Source of the DNA: a virus
Reading direction: 5' to 3' (one strand)
DNA length: 23,119 nucleotides
Virus record (IMG/VR): IMGVR_UViG_3300027796_000048
Span: 1-23,119 of that record
Positions 443-22,228 of this stretch are shown here, one piece after another. A program made the translations under genes and the position numbers. How positions within the stretch are numbered: the first letter of the stretch is position 1; the number at the start of each line of letters is the position of its first letter. The notes beneath the pieces were generated by a model, which ran no database searches, had not been told where the DNA came from, and saw nothing but the letters and a program-made list of their open reading frames with translations.

Positions 443-769
443 ATGATAGGAATAACAAAAGCCGAGCAACTTAAAAAGAACGGAACACTCAAAGAGAAGC
501 CATTCAAAAGTAAAGCCTATTTAGAGTGGTTCCACAATCAGAACTTTGGGTGCTTAGTGTGTGGAGATAACAATATCGAAGCACACCACATAATGCAAGG
601 AAATAGAGGCAGACAGGACGATTTAATTGTACCGTTATGCCCCGATCACCATCGAGGTAAATATTCTCCTCACGGGTTTGATGCTACGATGTTCCACGCG
701 ACTTATCCAAAAGATATGCAGATTGATATCGCAAATAAATTATTTGGAGAATGGGATGAAAGTAAGTAA
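443..769 (+). CDS. HNH-family nuclease, Ref/DUF968-like
   Basis: The 108-residue protein has a zinc-binding HNH arrangement: CxxC at residues 37-40, a HH pair at 48-49 within EAHHI, PLC at 64-66, a second HH pair at 69-70 and H77. The order C..C-HH-x(16)-C-xx-HH resembles the phage Ref (RecA-dependent nuclease of P1) and DUF968 families, which cut DNA during recombination. The C-terminal WF-type end (KLFGEW) also fits. The choice between Ref and DUF968 is not certain, and activity is inferred. It starts immediately after the upstream stop and overlaps the next gene, another nuclease, by 14 bases, so the two probably work in the same DNA-processing step. Confidence 0.7.
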   Translation: MIGITKAEQLKKNGTLKEKPFKSKAYLEWFHNQNFGCLVCGDNNIEAHHIMQGNRGRQDDLIVPLCPDHHRGKYSPHGFDATMFHATYPKDMQIDIANKLFGEWDESK

Positions 770-1435: not shown

Positions 1436-1795
1436 CTATTTTAGTGTACGCAACTTATAAAGCGTAGTAAGATAAAGCCCAACTATCTCATCTATAATAT
1501 TTTGAATCGCTGTATCTTCTTTGTCAGCATCATAAAATCTATTTTTCTCAATAGTCTTAAGATGAGTTTCCAATACAGTAGCAATATCTCCTTGTGGTGT
1601 ATCATTCATACGGGGGATATCTTTAATGATTCCGTGTCTACCTTGCCAAGTCTCAGCTAGACTATCTGCAAGATCAACAATCTCACTATAGAAAGTGTTA
1701 AGTGCCATGTGTTGAGCAAAGCTCTTAGTTTTTAAATGCTCCCTATGTGCAACATCACGACTTAGAAACATAATACCGATTAATTTACCTGCCAT
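1436..1795 (-). CDS. DUF5856-like phage protein (119 aa)
   Basis: This is the only gene on the minus strand. The N-terminal half (FLSRDVAHREHLKTKSFAQH followed by MALNTFYSEIVDLADSLAE and WQGRHG) fits the pattern of a helical phage family, DUF5856, whose members show SR-x-xAH-x-HL-x-TKS and a later AE-x-x-QG motif. The many spaced His, Glu and Asp residues recall ferritin-like helix bundles, but no function is established and I infer none. The start is supported by TAAGGAG on the minus strand 8 bases before the ATG. It is transcribed away from the terminase genes and may be an accessory gene with its own control. Confidence 0.68.
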   Translation of the reverse strand: MAGKLIGIMFLSRDVAHREHLKTKSFAQHMALNTFYSEIVDLADSLAETWQGRHGIIKDIPRMNDTPQGDIATVLETHLKTIEKNRFYDADKEDTAIQNIIDEIVGLYLTTLYKLRTLK

Positions 1796-6705: not shown

Positions 6706-7983
6706 ATGCCTCAAACAAATGGTATCGGTGGGAAGTTACTCACCTCAGACCTCATCCTTAAAGAAGCGATGTGGCAGTTCAAAAACAATCTTGTTGTGTG
6801 TAAGCGTGTATATCGTGACCTTGAAAATAAAGTTGTCAACGGTGTCGGTAACAGCGTAAGCGTTAAAAAGCCATTCCGTGTTAAATCAACTGAGGGTCGC
6901 ACACTTGGTGTTCAGCCTATGGTCGATAACACAGTTACAATCACTATCAATCGCCAACGTAATGTCGGGTTGAAATGGACTGTACAAGATTTGACTTTGT
7001 CTATCGAAGAGTTTTCACAACGTTACATTCAACCAGCCGTTGGTGAGATCGCAACACAAATCGAACTATCTGTATTTGAAGAAGCACAAAACGCTTACTT
7101 TATGACTGGTACTGTTGGTACTGCGCTTTCATACTCTACGTTTGCACTTACTCGTGCTCAAATGAATGGTGTTGCTATTCCTGGTGAGGGTACAGGCTTG
7201 CGTTCTGCACTTATCAATGATATTGATGCGGCAAACATTTCAACCTCACTCATGACTGTATTCGCTGGTCAAGGTAGTATCGCTAAAGATTCTATCCAAA
7301 AAGGCTATATGGGTCCACTAAGCGGAATGGAGTTCTATTCTTCTCCAATTGTTCCTACTCATACAGTTGGTGCTTATGTAGGTACACCTCTTGCAGACGG
7401 AGCAACGGCTCAAACTGGATCATCAATCCTAACTAAAGGTTGGACTGGATCAGTAACCGGACTCCTTAAGAAGTATGATATTATCACTTTTGCAGGTGTT
7501 TATGAGATCAACCCGATCACTCGTGTATCTACTGGACGATTGCAAACATTCGTTGTAACTGCTGATGTAAACTCTGTATCAGGTGCGGCTACTATTCCGA
7601 TTAGCCCAGCTATCAATGATGGTACTTTGACCACTACCGACATCGAGGGGACAACCATTTCCTTGGCGGCTTATCAAAACGTATCAGCGGCAGTTGCTGA
7701 CAATGCGGCTATTACTGTTAAAGGAACGGCAGGTGGTATCTATCGCCAAAACTTCTATATGCACAAAAACGCTATCGCACTATGTGTACCACAACTTGAA
7801 CTCCCACGTTCAGCGGTAGTTGCAGAGCGTATCACAGACCCTGAAAGCGGATTGTCTCTTTCATTGACTGAGGGATACACAGTTGGAGATCACACCGAAA
7901 CAACTCGTCTCGATGCAGTATGGGGCGTTAAGCTGATGAACCCAGAGCTTATCTTTAAGCAGTACACAGAAAAACTTAACTAA
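6706..7983 (+). CDS. major capsid (coat) protein, P22 gp5-like
   Basis: The 425-residue protein matches P22 coat in length (430) and pattern: the N-terminus SDLILKEAMWQFKNNLVVCK, then VSVKKPFRVKST followed by VTITINRQRNVGLKWT, and the end part MHKNAIALCVPQLELP with GYTVGDHTETTRLDAVWGVK followed by MNPEL. This is the HK97-type coat of the P22 family, in which an inserted beta domain lies in the middle; here the Ser/Thr/Val-rich stretch around residues 225-340 may be that insertion. It builds the icosahedral shell. AGGAG is 8 bases before the ATG. Codon use is more GC-rich and regular than in the accessory genes, as expected for a highly expressed gene. Confidence 0.92.
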   Translation: MPQTNGIGGKLLTSDLILKEAMWQFKNNLVVCKRVYRDLENKVVNGVGNSVSVKKPFRVKSTEGRTLGVQPMVDNTVTITINRQRNVGLKWTVQDLTLSIEEFSQRYIQPAVGEIATQIELSVFEEAQNAYFMTGTVGTALSYSTFALTRAQMNGVAIPGEGTGLRSALINDIDAANISTSLMTVFAGQGSIAKDSIQKGYMGPLSGMEFYSSPIVPTHTVGAYVGTPLADGATAQTGSSILTKGWTGSVTGLLKKYDIITFAGVYEINPITRVSTGRLQTFVVTADVNSVSGAATIPISPAINDGTLTTTDIEGTTISLAAYQNVSAAVADNAAITVKGTAGGIYRQNFYMHKNAIALCVPQLELPRSAVVAERITDPESGLSLSLTEGYTVGDHTETTRLDAVWGVKLMNPELIFKQYTEKLN

Positions 7984-7988
7984 GTTAT

Positions 7989-8021
7989 GTGATAGCTATC
8001 TCTTCGGAGAGGATTATTCAC
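7989..8021 (+). promoter_or_regulatory. RNA hairpin with UUCG loop after the coat gene
   Basis: TCTC 7999-8002 pairs with GAGA 8007-8010 around a TTCG tetraloop, one of the most stable RNA loops. GTGA at 7989-7992 can close with TCAC 8018-8021 outside it. GATAGCTATC at 7991-8000 is also a 10-base palindrome. No T-run follows, so it is more likely an mRNA-protecting or pausing structure than a true terminator. Confidence 0.4.
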
Positions 8022-8043
8022 CTAATAAAAACAAAGGCATATT

Positions 8044-8322
8044 ATGAGCGAACCATACAAACATTGGATGTACAATCTCGAAACAGGCGAAGGCGTACTA
8101 TTCAACAGCGTAGATGAATATAATCCTGAAAAGTGGGTAAATACTCCCGCGTTGTGTAACAAAGTAGAGGACGTTGAGGTGGTATTATCTGAACGTGATA
8201 TGCTTAAAAAAGAAGCCTCAGAATTAGGGCTTACATTTCCATCTAATGTTAAAACAGAAAAGCTAATGGAAATGATTAGCGAAGAAACCGAAAGACAATA
8301 TAAAGCCCAATCAGGAAACTAA
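8044..8322 (+). CDS. small head protein with HeH/LEM-like C-terminus (92 aa)
   Basis: The N-terminal half (HWMYNLETGEGVLFNS) resembles short phage proteins that follow the coat gene. The second half, LKKEASELGLTFPSNVKTEKLMEMI (residues about 54-78), has the helix-extended-helix pattern of the HeH/LEM fold (A-x-x-LG-x-x-x-P-x-N-x-K-T-x-x-L-x-x-x-I). Such domains bind DNA or proteins in phage capsid modules, but the exact role is not known. It lies between coat and the gp4-like gene and may be a head-completion or decoration protein. AAAGG lies upstream of the start. Confidence 0.6.
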   Translation: MSEPYKHWMYNLETGEGVLFNSVDEYNPEKWVNTPALCNKVEDVEVVLSERDMLKKEASELGLTFPSNVKTEKLMEMISEETERQYKAQSGN

Positions 8323-8331
8323 GGAGTTACA

Positions 8332-9054
8332 ATGCTCTTATCTAAAACAATAGACGGGGCATTGCGCCTCTTGGGTGTTCTTGCCGCTGGTGAAGAAGCA
8401 AGTCCAACAGAACACGAGGACGCATTAGATCGGTTAAATGGAATGATCGACGGATTCAATATTCAAAACTTCACTGTATCACACCTCCAAGAAAAAGTAT
8501 ATCATACCCCTCCAGCTGGATGGACTTCAAAAGTTACAATCGGTGCTGACCTTGATAACATATTTGTCGAGACCGCTCCAATGTCTATCCAAGCCGCTTT
8601 TTTCCGTGATGCCGCAGGGGTTGACTTTAAAATGTCTCCTATGGGTATCAATGAATGGGCTGATATGGTTTGGAAAAACATTGTTGCCCCTCCACTCAAA
8701 TACTATGAAAATTACTACGGTCATAATTTGGCTTTACAGTTTGATGTAATCCCGTACTCGTCATACACTCTTCATCTGATCTGTAAACTACCATACGTAG
8801 GAAACTATAAACCTACCGATAACATCGATTGGGATTATGGTTTTGAAGAAATGCTACGCTATCAACTCGCTGTACGTCTTGCTCCTGAGTATGGTGTAGC
8901 ATTGCGCCCTGATGTTGCTATGGCGGCTCAAAACCTTATGCAAAATATCAAGCGCAAAAACGCAACTTCTAAAACTATAAACGTTGACGTAGGGCTACAA
9001 CAAGGTAGAAAGCGAATGGGGTACTATGATATTATCAGCGGTGTTACACGATGA
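8332..9054 (+). CDS. head-tail connector, P22 gp4-like
   Basis: The 240-residue protein has the pattern of P22 tail accessory factor gp4: ALRLLGVLAAGEEASPTEHE followed by DALDRLNGMIDGFN near the N-terminus, then PMSIQAAFFRD and LHLICKLPYVGNY, FEEMLRYQLAVRLAPEYG, and a C-terminal helix before GYYDIISG. P22 gp4 itself is shorter (166), so this is a longer member. It would bind the bottom of the portal ring, stop DNA leaking out and give the platform for gp10. AAGGAG is 6 bases before the start, and its last four bases overlap the next gene. Confidence 0.82.
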   Translation: MLLSKTIDGALRLLGVLAAGEEASPTEHEDALDRLNGMIDGFNIQNFTVSHLQEKVYHTPPAGWTSKVTIGADLDNIFVETAPMSIQAAFFRDAAGVDFKMSPMGINEWADMVWKNIVAPPLKYYENYYGHNLALQFDVIPYSSYTLHLICKLPYVGNYKPTDNIDWDYGFEEMLRYQLAVRLAPEYGVALRPDVAMAAQNLMQNIKRKNATSKTINVDVGLQQGRKRMGYYDIISGVTR

Positions 9055-10241
9055 AAGTTCCTTTTGCTATATCTACGTCTCAGGCACGTAATAAAAAAGG
9101 CAACAATGAAGCCCTCATAAATATGTACGCTGATAGTATGCCGCCTAACGCAAAGAGCCAAGTAGTATTGTTAGGGTCTCCGGGATATATTGCGATTGAT
9201 AATATCGGATATAAAATAATTGGACTGCATTATTTTCAAGGTAGTACGTTTATTGTAACACCTAAAAAGCTATACAGACTAACAAACTCTGAGGATATCA
9301 TAGAAGTTGGTAATGTTTTGTTCACTACTGAGAAAGTATCAATAGCTGACAATGGCATCCAAATGGTCATAGTCGGTGGCAATGGGTTTTATTTTGATGG
9401 AAATGTCGTTACTCAAATTACAGACACGGCATATTACAAAAGCGATGCAGTTACATTCCAAGATGGATACTTTATATTCAAGCGTAACAACTCACAGCAA
9501 TTCTTTATATCAAAGCTATATTCAGTCGAATTTGACGCAACTATGTACGCAAGCGCGGAGGGTTCACCAGATCAAATCGTAGGAATAGTATCATTACACC
9601 AACAACTATTTATACTCGGTGAAAAATCAATCGAGGTATGGTACAACAGCGGTGACGCTCTTTTTCCTTTTGATAGAATACAAGGGTCGTTCTCTAAGCG
9701 TGGGTGCGTTGATAAAGATACAATAGCAGTTACGAATATGTCGATATTTTGGGTTGGCGATGATAATGTAGTTTACACAAATAATGGCTATACCCCAACG
9801 TCAATATCAAACAATTACGTAGAGTATCAGCTAGGTATAAACAAAGACAAAAAACTATTTGCGTTTACCTATACCGAAGAGGGGCATTATTTCTACGCCC
9901 TAACGATAGCAGATACCACAACAATGGTATTTGATGTAAAGACAGGGCTATGGCATACACGTTCAAGTAACGGGGGGCAATGGAACATCAAAGATATTAT
10001 CCATGTTGACGGCAAGCTAATAGGTGCTACTTATGATAATAATGTTGTGAGTGTAGGGCTTGACTACTACACAGAGGACGGACAAACCATAGAGCGACAC
10101 GCTGAGACTTCACCGTTTAGCAATGGGGTTAATTATTTCACACTAAATAAGTTTGAGCTTGACATGGAGACTGGGAAAACTCCTGCCAATGGTGGGTTAG
10201 AATATTATTTAATATCAATAGGGGGAGTATATGGCGATTAA
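9051..10241 (+). CDS. N-terminal part of gp10-like DNA stabilisation protein (split gene)
   Basis: The first 383 residues follow the P22 gp10 (Phage_stabilise) pattern: VPFAISTSQARNKKGNNEAL with NMYADSMP, then LLGSPGYIAI, VSIADNGIQMVIVGGNGFYF, SPDQIVGIVSLHQQLFILGE with KSIEVWYNSGD, and FSKRGCVDKDTIAVTN with IFWVGDD. It would form the beta-propeller ring under gp4. P22 gp10 has 472 residues; this one stops after GKTPANGGLEYYLISIGGVYGD at 396. The missing C-terminal module is found as residues 296-362 of the next gene, so the family gene is interrupted at about 10200. The start overlaps the gp4-like gene by four bases. Whether the two pieces still form one functional ring is not known. Confidence 0.85.
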   Translation: MKVPFAISTSQARNKKGNNEALINMYADSMPPNAKSQVVLLGSPGYIAIDNIGYKIIGLHYFQGSTFIVTPKKLYRLTNSEDIIEVGNVLFTTEKVSIADNGIQMVIVGGNGFYFDGNVVTQITDTAYYKSDAVTFQDGYFIFKRNNSQQFFISKLYSVEFDATMYASAEGSPDQIVGIVSLHQQLFILGEKSIEVWYNSGDALFPFDRIQGSFSKRGCVDKDTIAVTNMSIFWVGDDNVVYTNNGYTPTSISNNYVEYQLGINKDKKLFAFTYTEEGHYFYALTIADTTTMVFDVKTGLWHTRSSNGGQWNIKDIIHVDGKLIGATYDNNVVSVGLDYYTEDGQTIERHAETSPFSNGVNYFTLNKFELDMETGKTPANGGLEYYLISIGGVYGD

Positions 10242-11319
10242 TAATGTATTTAGCACAAATAGTTTAAGCGGAAATATTGTATTTGGAAACAATACGAATT
10301 TCCCTATAGACTATATCTATGACCATACCACTACATTATTGCAAGATGGAAGATTATTAATTATAGCTGGGAGACATTCTGCCCCACCTGATTATTTTAA
10401 TATTGTATCTAATAGCTGCTATTTAGGAACCATGAATAATGGTGTTTTATCATGGGTACAAATAAATGATTTCCCTATAACAGTAAATCAACATTCTAGT
10501 GTTTTATTATCGGATGGTAGGGTTTTGGTAGTAGGTGGATGGGATCAATATAACGCCTTAAACTCAACATATATTGGAACAATTTCAGGCAATACTATAT
10601 CATGGGTTCAATCCAACAATTTCCCAACATATATATCACTAAAAAGCTTAATATTGCTATCTGATGGTAGAGTAGTAACGTTTGAGCCTGAAAATGTAAG
10701 CCCTGATATGTCATATTTTATGACTATAAGTGGGGATACTATTGCCTATCAACAGTTAATAGTATCTCCTGATTATATTGTATACCCTAGATATGCAATA
10801 CAATTAAATTATACGAGAATATTGGCTGTTAGCAACTTTCTTGGTGTGGATTATATTCATAAAATATACATTGGAACAATTTCAGGTAGCTCTATTACAT
10901 GGGTATATGCAGGGGATTACCCTAGTGTACCCGGAGCTATTGGGTCGCTTACGTTGTTACCAAATGGTAAAGTTTTTTCTAAAGAAGATGGTTCTGTAAA
11001 TACATATATAGGCACAGTGAGTGGTAATACTGTATCATGGGTTCCAAATGATAATTTCCCGTATGGGTATCAGGACAATACAATGACAATTTTACCAGTT
11101 AGCATACCTGTAAAACCCGACGAAATAACCCTATCATTCTCATCCGATGGTGGAGTATCTTTCAGCAATAACAAAACCATATCACTCGGAGCGCAAGGGG
11201 AGCGTAAAAAACGTATTATATGGCGCAGACTTGGACGGCATAGGAACTTGACTCTCAAAGTGACTACACGGTGTACTTCACAAGTAAATATCATTGCGGC
11301 TCATGCGGAGCTTTCATGA
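10231..11319 (+). CDS. kelch-like propeller fused to C-terminal module of gp10
   Basis: Residues 1 to about 290 hold five repeats of roughly 48 residues with the kelch look: LLQDGRLLIIAG, LLSDGRVLVVGG, LLSDGRVVTF, a weaker one near ILAVSNF, and LLPNGKVF, each followed by YIGTISG-x-x-ISWV and FP. This would be a carbohydrate- or protein-binding beta-propeller. Residues 296-362 (PDEITLSFSSDGG, then GERKKRIIWRRLGRHRNLTL and IIAAHAEL) match the C-terminal end of gp10-family proteins (LSDDGG...RRLGR.R). The gene has its own start with GGGGGAG 3 bases before ATG and is in a different frame from the upstream gp10 part, which it overlaps by 11 bases. The propeller part is clearly more A+T-rich than its neighbours, suggesting acquisition. 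Confidence 0.75.
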   Translation: MAINNVFSTNSLSGNIVFGNNTNFPIDYIYDHTTTLLQDGRLLIIAGRHSAPPDYFNIVSNSCYLGTMNNGVLSWVQINDFPITVNQHSSVLLSDGRVLVVGGWDQYNALNSTYIGTISGNTISWVQSNNFPTYISLKSLILLSDGRVVTFEPENVSPDMSYFMTISGDTIAYQQLIVSPDYIVYPRYAIQLNYTRILAVSNFLGVDYIHKIYIGTISGSSITWVYAGDYPSVPGAIGSLTLLPNGKVFSKEDGSVNTYIGTVSGNTVSWVPNDNFPYGYQDNTMTILPVSIPVKPDEITLSFSSDGGVSFSNNKTISLGAQGERKKRIIWRRLGRHRNLTLKVTTRCTSQVNIIAAHAELS

Positions 11320-11579
11320 TACTCAAAGAATCTAAACTCGATCAAGTACCGTCTAACGTACAAATAGTTGATAGCAGAGGGTTTGCTACACGCTCGCTCA
11401 CATTCTTTTTAGTGAAGATCATCAATAAGTTAGTAAATAATGACTTGAATGTGTCGGGTATAAACGACGAAGTATCCGCACTATCTAATGGCATAACCAC
11501 ATCGATTACTGTCGTGGATACATCATTGGTAACAAAGACACTGAACTTTGAGAACGGCATACTAAAAAGCATAACTTAA
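11316..11579 (+). CDS. small tail-associated protein (87 aa)
   Basis: The frame is open from 11271, but ATG 11316 is the likely start: GGAG lies 5 bases before it and it overlaps the upstream TGA as ATGA. The 87-residue product (MILKESKLDQ...) has no recognised domain. Its C-terminus ITVVDTSLVTKTLNFENGIL followed by KSIT has the Val/Thr-rich strand pattern (TKTL-x-F-x-NG-x-L) often found at the end of short phage tail or head-tail proteins. The position after gp10 suggests a small virion or assembly protein. Confidence 0.55.
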   Translation: MILKESKLDQVPSNVQIVDSRGFATRSLTFFLVKIINKLVNNDLNVSGINDEVSALSNGITTSITVVDTSLVTKTLNFENGILKSIT

Positions 11580-18006: not shown

Positions 18007-19686
18007 GTGATAGCTAAAATTTTTACCGACGGAGTTTTTCAAGGGCTTGGTAATGATGGATTGCCAGTTGCTCTAGGTAGTGTTGCTATTAAAGTAACAT
18101 CAACTGGCGTAGACGCAACTACATACCAAGACTCGGCTATGGCTGTAACAAACCAAACCCCTGTTCCATTGTCTGCATCAGGCAAGGCAAAAATATTCTT
18201 ATCCCCAGACACTTATGATATTACGCTTTACGATCAATACGATGCGGTAGTATGGACGCTTGATGCGCTTGATTATAATGTAGATACTAGCCAATTAGGA
18301 ACATTTCAAACAGATGTAAGAATAGAGGGTAACGACACTAGGCTGACTGGTAGCTATGGTACAGGCGACCTAAGTACCAATTTAGCGTTAGGTGACGATT
18401 CACTATTTAATGTAACAACTGGTGACAATAATATTGCCATAGGGCCTAACTCGCTTTATTTCAATACTACTGGATATAACAATGTATCCGTAGGTGTTTA
18501 CTCTCTTTACTTGAATACTACAGGATATGGCAATATATCTTTTGGCAATGAATCATTATATAACAACACCACAGGTAATGACAATAATGCTCATGGAGAT
18601 AGAGCATTATACTCCAACATATCAGGGTATAACAATACTGCAATAGGACAGCATACACTATATTTTAATACCACTGGGTTTGATAATACTGCCGTAGGAA
18701 AAGAGGCTTTATACTCTAATACTACAGGAGCATCTAATACTGCATTAGGTAAATTTACATTGTATTCAAACACGTCAGGATATAGCAATACTGCTATTTG
18801 CGATGGTTCATTATATAGTAACACTACTGGGTATGGAAATAATGCTATAGGGTCAAGAGCATTATATAACAATACTACAGGCAATGACAATAATGCCATA
18901 GGGGCTGATTCATTATTTTTAAATACAACAGGTAGTAATAATAATGCTATTGGTTCAGGTTCATTAAATAGCAACACTACAGGAGATGAAAATTGTGCAT
19001 TTGGTGATTACGCTCTGCATGATGCCGATTCTGTAAACAACAATGCGATAGGGTTTGCTTCGCTGAGATTGACAACAACTGGTGCAACAAATAACGCATT
19101 CGGGTCATATGCTCTTTACTCAAATACAACTGGAAGTAGCAATTGCGCTTTTGGAGACAACGCACTTTCTAATAATGTATCGTATGATAATACTGTTGGA
19201 ATAGGGACAGATTCACAAGTAACAGGTAGTGACCAAGTACAGCTTGGGGACTCAGCGACTACAACTTACGTATACGGAACAGTACAAGATCGATCGGATG
19301 AGAGAGACAAAGCAGACATTAAAGATACATCACTTGGTCTTGATTTCATTATGTCCCTTAGACCAGTCGAATATAGATGGGATATGCGCGAAGATTACAA
19401 ACCTAAAAAACAAAAAGGTCTCTCAGGTAAGGAATTATCAGATTACTTAGAGAAGTGCAAATTAGGGAATATAACTCACGATGGAACTCACAAGAGAAAA
19501 AGACTTCATCAAGGGTTTATAGCTCAGGAAGTTATGCAAACCAATCCTAACTTTGGAGGGGTGCAAGACCACTCCATCAATGGTGGGGATGATGTAATGA
19601 GCATTGGGTATAATGAGTTTATAGCACCACTGGTAAAAGCTATTCAAGAGTTAAAAAAAGAAATCGATATACTAAAAGGAGTTTAA
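18007..19686 (+). CDS. tail fibre with 17-residue repeats and S74 self-cleaving chaperone
   Basis: It starts at GTG with AAAGAGG upstream. Residues 1-95 (IFTDGVFQGLGNDGLPVALG, later TTYQDSAM and LSASGKAKIFLSPDTYDITL) look like the virion-binding domain of phage fibres. From about residue 132 come about sixteen repeats of 17 residues, consensus ALYSNTTGYNNTAIGxx, like the beta-roll heads of trimeric adhesins. The C-terminus has a Peptidase_S74 domain (SDERDKADI, LRPVEYRW, HQGFIAQEV, YNEFIAPLVKAIQELKKEI). This family folds the trimer and then cuts itself off before an Asp; here the Ser-Asp pair is S430-D431, so a 430-residue fibre and a 129-residue chaperone are expected. It is the first gene of the adhesion block. 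Confidence 0.88.
   Translation: MIAKIFTDGVFQGLGNDGLPVALGSVAIKVTSTGVDATTYQDSAMAVTNQTPVPLSASGKAKIFLSPDTYDITLYDQYDAVVWTLDALDYNVDTSQLGTFQTDVRIEGNDTRLTGSYGTGDLSTNLALGDDSLFNVTTGDNNIAIGPNSLYFNTTGYNNVSVGVYSLYLNTTGYGNISFGNESLYNNTTGNDNNAHGDRALYSNISGYNNTAIGQHTLYFNTTGFDNTAVGKEALYSNTTGASNTALGKFTLYSNTSGYSNTAICDGSLYSNTTGYGNNAIGSRALYNNTTGNDNNAIGADSLFLNTTGSNNNAIGSGSLNSNTTGDENCAFGDYALHDADSVNNNAIGFASLRLTTTGATNNAFGSYALYSNTTGSSNCAFGDNALSNNVSYDNTVGIGTDSQVTGSDQVQLGDSATTTYVYGTVQDRSDERDKADIKDTSLGLDFIMSLRPVEYRWDMREDYKPKKQKGLSGKELSDYLEKCKLGNITHDGTHKRKRLHQGFIAQEVMQTNPNFGGVQDHSINGGDDVMSIGYNEFIAPLVKAIQELKKEIDILKGV
18400..19205 (+). repeat. tandem 51-base coding repeats in the fibre gene
   Basis: About sixteen units of 17 codons, consensus (S/A)LYSNTTGYNNTAIG plus three variable residues, lie in one row. 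Units diverge in DNA but keep Asn, Thr and Gly positions. The unit beginning ALHDADS is one residue short. Such arrays can change length by slippage or recombination, which would change fibre length. Confidence 0.85.
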
Positions 19687-21334: not shown

Positions 21335-22228
21335 ATGTTATACGATAAATTATTATTATTTTCAAAAATAACTATTAGTAGTGGGTCATACGGTTATATT
21401 GCTGGGGCAAACACAGGCTCATCTGCAATTAAAAAAATAAATGTGGAAGTAGATAGTGCCACGGCAAATATATCTGCTACACTTAGCTATAGCACATGGG
21501 CTAGTAGTTCAGTATCTACAAGCAGTAATGCTTTTAATATGGGAGGAGCTGGGACATACCCAACCACTATAAATAAATTTAACTTAGCGTCTGAGGCTAT
21601 ATCAGTACCATCTGCGACCTTAGCCCTCGGTAGAATGAACGCCGTTGGAATGTCATCATCTACTAATGGATATGGTATTACTGGATATAATGGGGCTGAT
21701 AGAACAGAAATAGACGGATTGTCTTTTAGTACGGAAACCTCTATAAACCCATCTGCAACAGCATCATTCGCGTCTGGATACTCAGAGTGCAGAGGTTTTC
21801 AAAAAGGTACAACTTCTGGAATTATGGGCGGAGGGAACGGGTCAAGCCTACTTAATTCTACTATGGAATTTACTTTTTCTACCGAAACATCATCTACATT
21901 GGGGGCAACTCTATCCGTTTCTAGGGGATTTCTTGCAACTGTGTGGAGTTCGTCAAACGGATATTGGTGTGGTGGGTTTAGTTCTGTAAATTATTCGGAT
22001 ATTGACGGAATAAATTTAAGCACTAACGCGGCGATAAACCCATCGGCAACATTAACCGCAGCTAATCGTGGCTGCCATGGGTTTAATGGTGTATCAAAAG
22101 GGTTAATTGCAGGAGGGCAAGCGGCTAACACCGTAGATGAACTAACATTTTCAACCGAAACTCGTTCCGCTCGTACAAATTCATTAAATAGTACGGTATA
22201 TTATGGAACATCTTTACAAGGACTTTAA
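21335..22228 (+). CDS. six-repeat propeller-type adhesin (297 aa)
   Basis: Six repeats of about 46 residues follow one another, each with GY-x-x-GG near the start, a central I-x-x-L-x-FSTET strand and a SATLS-x-x-R end (for example GGGNGSSLLN, then MEFTFSTETSS and GATLSVSRGF; later GGQAANTVDELTFSTETRSA). This is the look of a kelch or galactose-oxidase-type beta-propeller, here six-bladed. The start lies one base after the fibre stop and no good ribosome binding site is visible, so it is probably coupled. The product is likely a receptor-binding tip for the preceding fibre. The binding target is unknown. It is not closely similar to the kelch insert in gp10, although the fold may be related. 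Confidence 0.62.
   Translation: MLYDKLLLFSKITISSGSYGYIAGANTGSSAIKKINVEVDSATANISATLSYSTWASSSVSTSSNAFNMGGAGTYPTTINKFNLASEAISVPSATLALGRMNAVGMSSSTNGYGITGYNGADRTEIDGLSFSTETSINPSATASFASGYSECRGFQKGTTSGIMGGGNGSSLLNSTMEFTFSTETSSTLGATLSVSRGFLATVWSSSNGYWCGGFSSVNYSDIDGINLSTNAAINPSATLTAANRGCHGFNGVSKGLIAGGQAANTVDELTFSTETRSARTNSLNSTVYYGTSLQGL

What the first reader, a model, noticed from the sequence alone, without database searches (positions are those of the whole stretch)
9051..11319. gp10-like gene split by an inserted kelch propeller
The gp10 family pattern runs to about residue 383 of the first gene and resumes at residue 296 of the second. The two parts sum to about 450 residues, close to the 472 of P22 gp10. 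Between them lies an A+T-rich kelch cassette with its own ribosome binding site, and the frame changes. If both products assemble, the tail ring would carry propellers around the stabilising ring, a possible second receptor-binding layer. The alternative is a disabled gene or frameshift-made fusion.
Basis: partly seen in the sequence, partly recalled or inferred. Interest (0 to 1): 0.78.

Follow-up and report, generated by a model that had tools for sequence, protein, structure and literature searches.

The report
Phage tail-ring gene interrupted by propeller
In this short-tailed virus of bacteria, the gene for the protein ring that seals the tail has a kelch propeller domain inserted into one loop and is read as two overlapping genes; the same loop carries other, unrelated extra domains in other phages, so it looks like a place where the tail ring picks up accessory, perhaps cell-binding, parts.

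Summary
Gene 1 (9051-10241) matches the P22 gp10 tail-hub family (phrog_578) over profile positions 5-398. Residues 295-361 of gene 2 (10231-11319) match 404-469 of the same profile. Between them lie about 310 residues: five complete kelch blades plus the two ends of a sixth. No homologue surveyed has this layout: the nearest relatives (about 59-66% identical over the N part) have one continuous gene of 452-454 codons, and no second gp10 was found in the 23-kb record.

(1) The insertion site is a loop that takes unrelated domains in at least three other phage lineages (about 82, 109 and 154 residues), always in one continuous frame. (2) The gene boundary is probably not the domain boundary. 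A read-through model matches complete six-bladed kelch domains (Z about 25), with the tail of gene 1 supplying a strand of the closing blade. That evidence is suggestive, not proof.

Best reading: a tail hub with an inserted propeller, made as two translationally coupled chains that fold together (about 0.5). Rivals: one chain whose frame is broken in this contig (0.3), or a frameshift-made fusion (0.12). Receptor binding is inference.

The parts
9051..10187 (+). gp10 N part: N-terminal strands, hub beta-propeller and first strands of the C-terminal (platform) domain
   Evidence: phrog_578 positions 5-398, E 2.7e-84; 59-66% identity to intact relatives
10188..10241 (+). Tail of gene 1 beyond the gp10 loop (NGGLEYYLISIGGVYGD, stop): probable first strand of the inserted propeller
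   Evidence: Absent from relatives; strand in the read-through model; aligned to the start of six-bladed kelch domains; not scored by the blade profile
10220..10225 (+). AGGGGG ribosome-binding site of gene 2
   Evidence: 5 nt before the ATG; same form before genes 200 and 12588; rarity estimated
10231..10305 (+). Start of gene 2: probable last strands of the closing (sixth) blade
   Evidence: Strands NNVFST and VFGN in the read-through model; alignment to other blades not significant by shuffling, p 0.09
10306..11061 (+). Five kelch blades of 46-57 residues
   Evidence: Repeat alignment and profile; fold matches
11062..11115 (+). End of the propeller (strand TMTILP of the closing blade) and linker back to gp10
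   Evidence: Strand in the model; sequence lacks a match in relatives
11116..11319 (+). gp10 C part, in frame with the propeller; completes the platform domain
   Evidence: phrog_578 positions 404-469, E 2.1e-9; 86% identical to L002
8332..9054 (+). Upstream neighbour: gp4-like adaptor, overlapping the start of gp10
   Evidence: phrog_12985 E 1.2e-35 and phrog_637 head-tail adaptor E 4e-8; same order in relatives
11316..11579 (+). Downstream neighbour, overlapping the gp10 stop by 4 nt as in L002 and L010

Best explanation
This is the tail-hub gene (P22 gp10 family) of a short-tailed phage with a kelch beta-propeller inserted into a loop of the C-terminal domain. Shown: the two gp10 parts, their order, the site, the propeller repeats, and the absence of this insertion in every surveyed homologue. 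Inferred: by comparison with solved nozzle proteins, the loop lies in the platform domain that abuts the adaptor, so a hexameric hub would carry six extra propellers. Proposed mechanism: gene 2 is translated by coupled re-initiation at 10231 from its own ribosome site inside gene 1, and the two chains fold together, with the gene-1 tail closing the sixth blade and the last 67 residues completing the gp10 C-terminal domain. The propellers most likely act as an accessory surface that binds cell-surface glycans or steadies the spikes (inference only).
For: Complementary halves of one profile in the right order and place; uninterrupted gene in all near relatives; three other unrelated insertions in the same loop, so the site tolerates domains; AGGGGG site and ATG at the overlap, where a site-equipped in-frame start within 10 codons of a random break is expected at 0.3-0.8%; C part 85-86% identical to relatives and in frame with the propeller; both parts show far fewer replacement than synonymous changes. 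Nozzle architecture: PMC6702177, PMC9509320.
Against: All other insertions at this loop are in one continuous frame. The closing blade seems to span both genes, which points to a one-chain origin. No co-folding or protein evidence; both models have low confidence. Synonymous sites are saturated, so selection since the insertion cannot be tested.
Confidence: 0.5

Rival explanations
1. The real gene encodes one chain, gp10 with an inserted propeller, and the frame change is an assembly error or a disabling mutation in this genome copy.
For: Every other insertion at this loop is single-frame; the closing blade appears to span the break; a homologue in the same collection, L046, has a broken frame, about 1 in 105.
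Against: The break coincides with a good ribosome site and ATG, expected by chance at under 1%.
Confidence: 0.3
2. Ribosomal frameshifting or transcriptional slippage at the G-rich stretch makes a fused gp10-kelch-gp10 chain.
For: Run of five G and an internal ribosome-site-like sequence at the overlap; frameshifted structural proteins are known in other phages (PMC5009743, PMC6669499).
Against: No recognised slippery site with a stimulator was identified; the ribosome site and ATG explain the layout more simply; the shorter product alone would be an incomplete hub.
Confidence: 0.12
3. A kelch gene landed in gp10 by chance and the hub function is supplied by another gene outside the fragment.
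For: Own start and ribosome site; base composition differs somewhat. The record is a 23-kb fragment.
Against: Insertion at a loop boundary, in frame with the gp10 C part; no target-site duplication; no second gp10 in the record; no Rfam match and no intein domain among the Pfam matches.
Confidence: 0.08

Closest known systems
P22 gp10 and relatives (PHROG 578; PDB 8tvr, 7sg7, 8eap, 7eeq, 9vyg)
   Same: Sequence family, gene order, total length of the gp10 parts
   Different: Known members are one uninterrupted chain without a kelch domain
gp10 homologues with other insertions at the same loop (L112/L120, L133, L050)
   Same: Extra domain in the same loop
   Different: Domains of about 109, 154 and 82 residues, not kelch by the searches made here, single frame
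T7 gp12 and SU10 gp17 nozzle proteins (PMC6702177, PMC9509320)
   Same: Hexameric nozzle with a beta-propeller and a platform domain; extra domains or fibre docks carried on the nozzle
   Different: Extra domains sit elsewhere in the chain and are not kelch; T7 and SU10 show no sequence similarity to each other
'Evolved' Dit and tail proteins of lactococcal 936 phages (PMC6669499)
   Same: Accessory domain inserted in a conserved tail protein; a tail extension there is made by programmed frameshift
   Different: Carbohydrate-binding modules on siphophages, with binding shown for some; no binding data here
Six-bladed kelch domains (Keap1, KLHL proteins)
   Same: Fold of the read-through model over residues 31-335, Z about 25
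   Different: 10-14% identity; function not implied; low-confidence model

Membership tests
P22 gp10 tail-hub family (PHROG 578) | Profile match over the length of the protein | tested here: met
   Positions 5-398 in gene 1 and 404-469 in gene 2
P22 gp10 tail-hub family (PHROG 578) | Gene order after the gp4-like adaptor | tested here: met
   Same order in relatives
P22 gp10 tail-hub family (PHROG 578) | One uninterrupted chain (usual, not strictly defining) | tested here: not met
   Two overlapping frames; relatives uninterrupted
P22 gp10 tail-hub family (PHROG 578) | Hexameric ring sealing the tail in the virion | not testable with these tools
   Needs virions or a multimer model
Kelch propeller | Repeats of about 50 residues, four strands each | tested here: met
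   Five repeats; strands in models
Kelch propeller | Curated Pfam kelch score reached | tested here: not met
   Best Kelch_4 18.9 bits against a cut-off of 21.6; weak members are often missed
Kelch propeller | Closed ring with a closing blade from both ends | tested here: inconclusive
   Read-through model fits six-bladed domains, but confidence is low and the tail is not scored by the blade profile
Programmed frameshift gene | Recognised slippery site with a stimulator at the overlap | tested here: inconclusive
   G run and ribosome-site-like sequence by inspection; no dedicated search or product evidence
Intein or self-splicing intron | Intein domain or intron RNA in the insert | tested here: not met
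   No such Pfam match and no Rfam match at gathering score
Carbohydrate-binding tail decoration (evolved Dit type) | Inserted domain binds host glycan | not testable with these tools
   No binding data; propeller lectins are only among the fold matches of the gene-2 model

The most novel reading that the evidence does not exclude
A phage tail hub made of two separately translated chains whose shared kelch propeller is closed by one strand from the first chain and the remaining strands from the second, so that the propeller itself clamps the two halves of the hub together and carries a ring of six extra binding heads.
Probability: 0.3. Interest if true: 0.65.

Novelty: new variant of a known kind. 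Interest (0 to 1): 0.45.

Why it matters
gp10 seals the genome in short-tailed phages and is treated as a conserved core part. Four unrelated domains at the same loop (the kelch propeller and three others) show a permissive site on the hub where phages add accessory parts, as siphophages do on Dit. If the two-chain version is real, it is a natural split of an essential ring protein held together by a propeller. The site would also be a testable attachment point on podophage tail hubs in laboratory strains.

Tried and rejected
Pattern search for the junction in viral contigs: none. Kelch relatives in viral and genome contigs: none beyond generic kelch proteins, one weak hit (E 5) in Myxococcus phage Mx1, and none in 16 relatives' contigs (no positive control). 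Intein or intron: no Pfam or Rfam match. Transposon-like target duplication: none of 8 or more bases. Gene-1 tail as a decayed copy of the gp10 C part: shuffle p 0.012 to 0.47 over five sequences, not convincing. A blade profile does not score the gene-1 tail. Ageing the insertion by dN/dS: synonymous sites saturated. Literature searches for kelch in phage tail proteins: no direct precedent seen in the held library, which lacks many subscription papers.

Full report
What is there. The window is a 23,119-base virus record with a P22-like structural module: terminase, portal, scaffold, coat, adaptor, the finding, a DNA-ejection protein, a large polyvalent protein and tail-spike genes. Gene 1 (9051-10241) matches PHROG 578 at positions 5-398 and gene 2 (10231-11319) at 404-469. 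A profile of intact relatives finds P22 gp10 (8tvr) at E 6e-19 and two other solved hub proteins (7eeq, 9vyg) at E 1.5e-58 and 2.5e-65. The record holds one gp10 match only.

Relatives. The nearest IMG/VR relatives (L002, L004, L005, L010, L013) have one gp10 of 452-454 codons, with the loop ETGKSPINAEDTITLSF (L002) at the place where the window carries about 310 extra residues. Among 105 distinct homologous ORFs, 92 cover most of the family profile; none of these carries a kelch insert or this two-frame layout.

A permissive loop. Insertions of 20 residues or more occur at a few sites. Three independent ones fall at profile positions 389-392, the same loop as in the window: about 109 residues in L112 (L120 is a near copy), 154 in L133 and 82 in L050. 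The L050 insert resembles an E1_FCCH domain (E 0.0008, below the Pfam cut-off). The L112 insert matches stretches of other virion proteins. All are in one frame. Other insertions fall at positions 123-158 (L050, L144, L148) and 313 (L134).

The propeller. Gene 2 contains five clear repeats. tblastn finds a stretch of a Cupriavidus replicon at E 5e-6 and weaker matches to annotated kelch proteins of Leptospira, Azoarcus and Cupriavidus, but no close relative was found in phages or genomes. A single-sequence model of gene 2 (mean pLDDT 50.5) still matches galactose oxidase and Photorhabdus lectin propellers (Foldseek E 4e-7 and 1e-6; Z up to 17 for galactose oxidases).

Where the gene boundary lies. 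Read through as one chain from 10101, the model (mean pLDDT 63, pTM 0.65) has strands in the gene-1 tail (YYLISI), then NNVFST and VFGN, and the last propeller strand TMTILP. It aligns over about residues 31-335 to complete six-bladed kelch domains such as KLHL3 and Keap1, Z about 25, with 272 residues aligned to the 289-residue KLHL3 chain at 2.9 A. The tail also shows the hydrophobic-GG motif of kelch strands (frequency 0.006 among 13-residue stretches of other proteins here, 0.05 among composition-matched shuffles). A blade profile does not score it, and the read-through model also had a small alignment that the gene-2 model lacked, so the comparison of the two models is not a clean control. 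This is suggestive only. If right, the frame change falls inside the closing blade, which points to a one-chain origin.

Two chains, one fusion, or a broken gene. For separate translation: AGGGGG five bases before the ATG, the form used before genes 200 and 12588. Half of the listed gene starts in the window carry such a site, whereas a site-equipped in-frame start within 10 codons of a random break is expected at 0.3-0.8%. Against: all other insertions at this loop are single-frame, and about 1 in 105 homologues in this collection (L046) has a broken frame. I weigh these as about 0.5 for two coupled chains, 0.3 for a break in this copy, 0.12 for frameshifting and 0.08 for an unrelated inserted gene; these are judgements, not computed values.

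History. The window's coat protein and adaptor are 93% and 87% identical to L010, but its gp10 N part is only about 61% identical and its C part 85%. The N part has therefore diverged more than its neighbours, or came from another lineage. Both parts show far fewer replacement than synonymous changes, with synonymous sites near saturation, so no age can be given.

Function. In T7 and SU10 the platform domain of the nozzle contacts the adaptor, and fibre docks or extra domains sit on the nozzle (PMC6702177, PMC9509320). In lactococcal 936 phages, inserted carbohydrate-binding modules decorate Dit and other tail proteins (PMC6669499). By analogy, propellers on the hub could bind glycans or brace the spikes. 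This is inference; that the loop lies in the platform domain is also inferred from those structures, not measured here. The window also has its own tail-spike gene at 18007.

Noticed in passing
L050 3962-6040; L133 2270-4198; L112 3893-5707; L148 870-2603; L144 2651-4204: gp10 homologues with other extra domains, both at the same loop and at hub-propeller loops (profile positions 123-158).
   Followed up: partly
L046 4141-5546: gp10 homologue broken into two frames mid-gene, near runs of A and T; it may be a sequencing or assembly error.
   Followed up: partly
window 9051-10187 compared with 6706-9054: gp10 N part is much more diverged from relatives than the neighbouring coat and adaptor genes, as if exchanged.
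   Followed up: partly
window 21335-22228: Glycine-rich repetitive protein matching phrog_19111 (function unknown), possibly another propeller near the tail genes.
   Followed up: no
window 18007-19686: Tail-spike-like protein with many short repeats and a C-terminal Peptidase_S74 chaperone domain.
   Followed up: no
window 443-769 and 627-1076: HNH-endonuclease-like and Holliday-junction-resolvase-like genes upstream of the terminase, overlapping each other.
   Followed up: no
window 1436-1795, - strand: Matches phrog_858, named a starvation-inducible transcriptional regulator, on the opposite strand to the structural genes.
   Followed up: no
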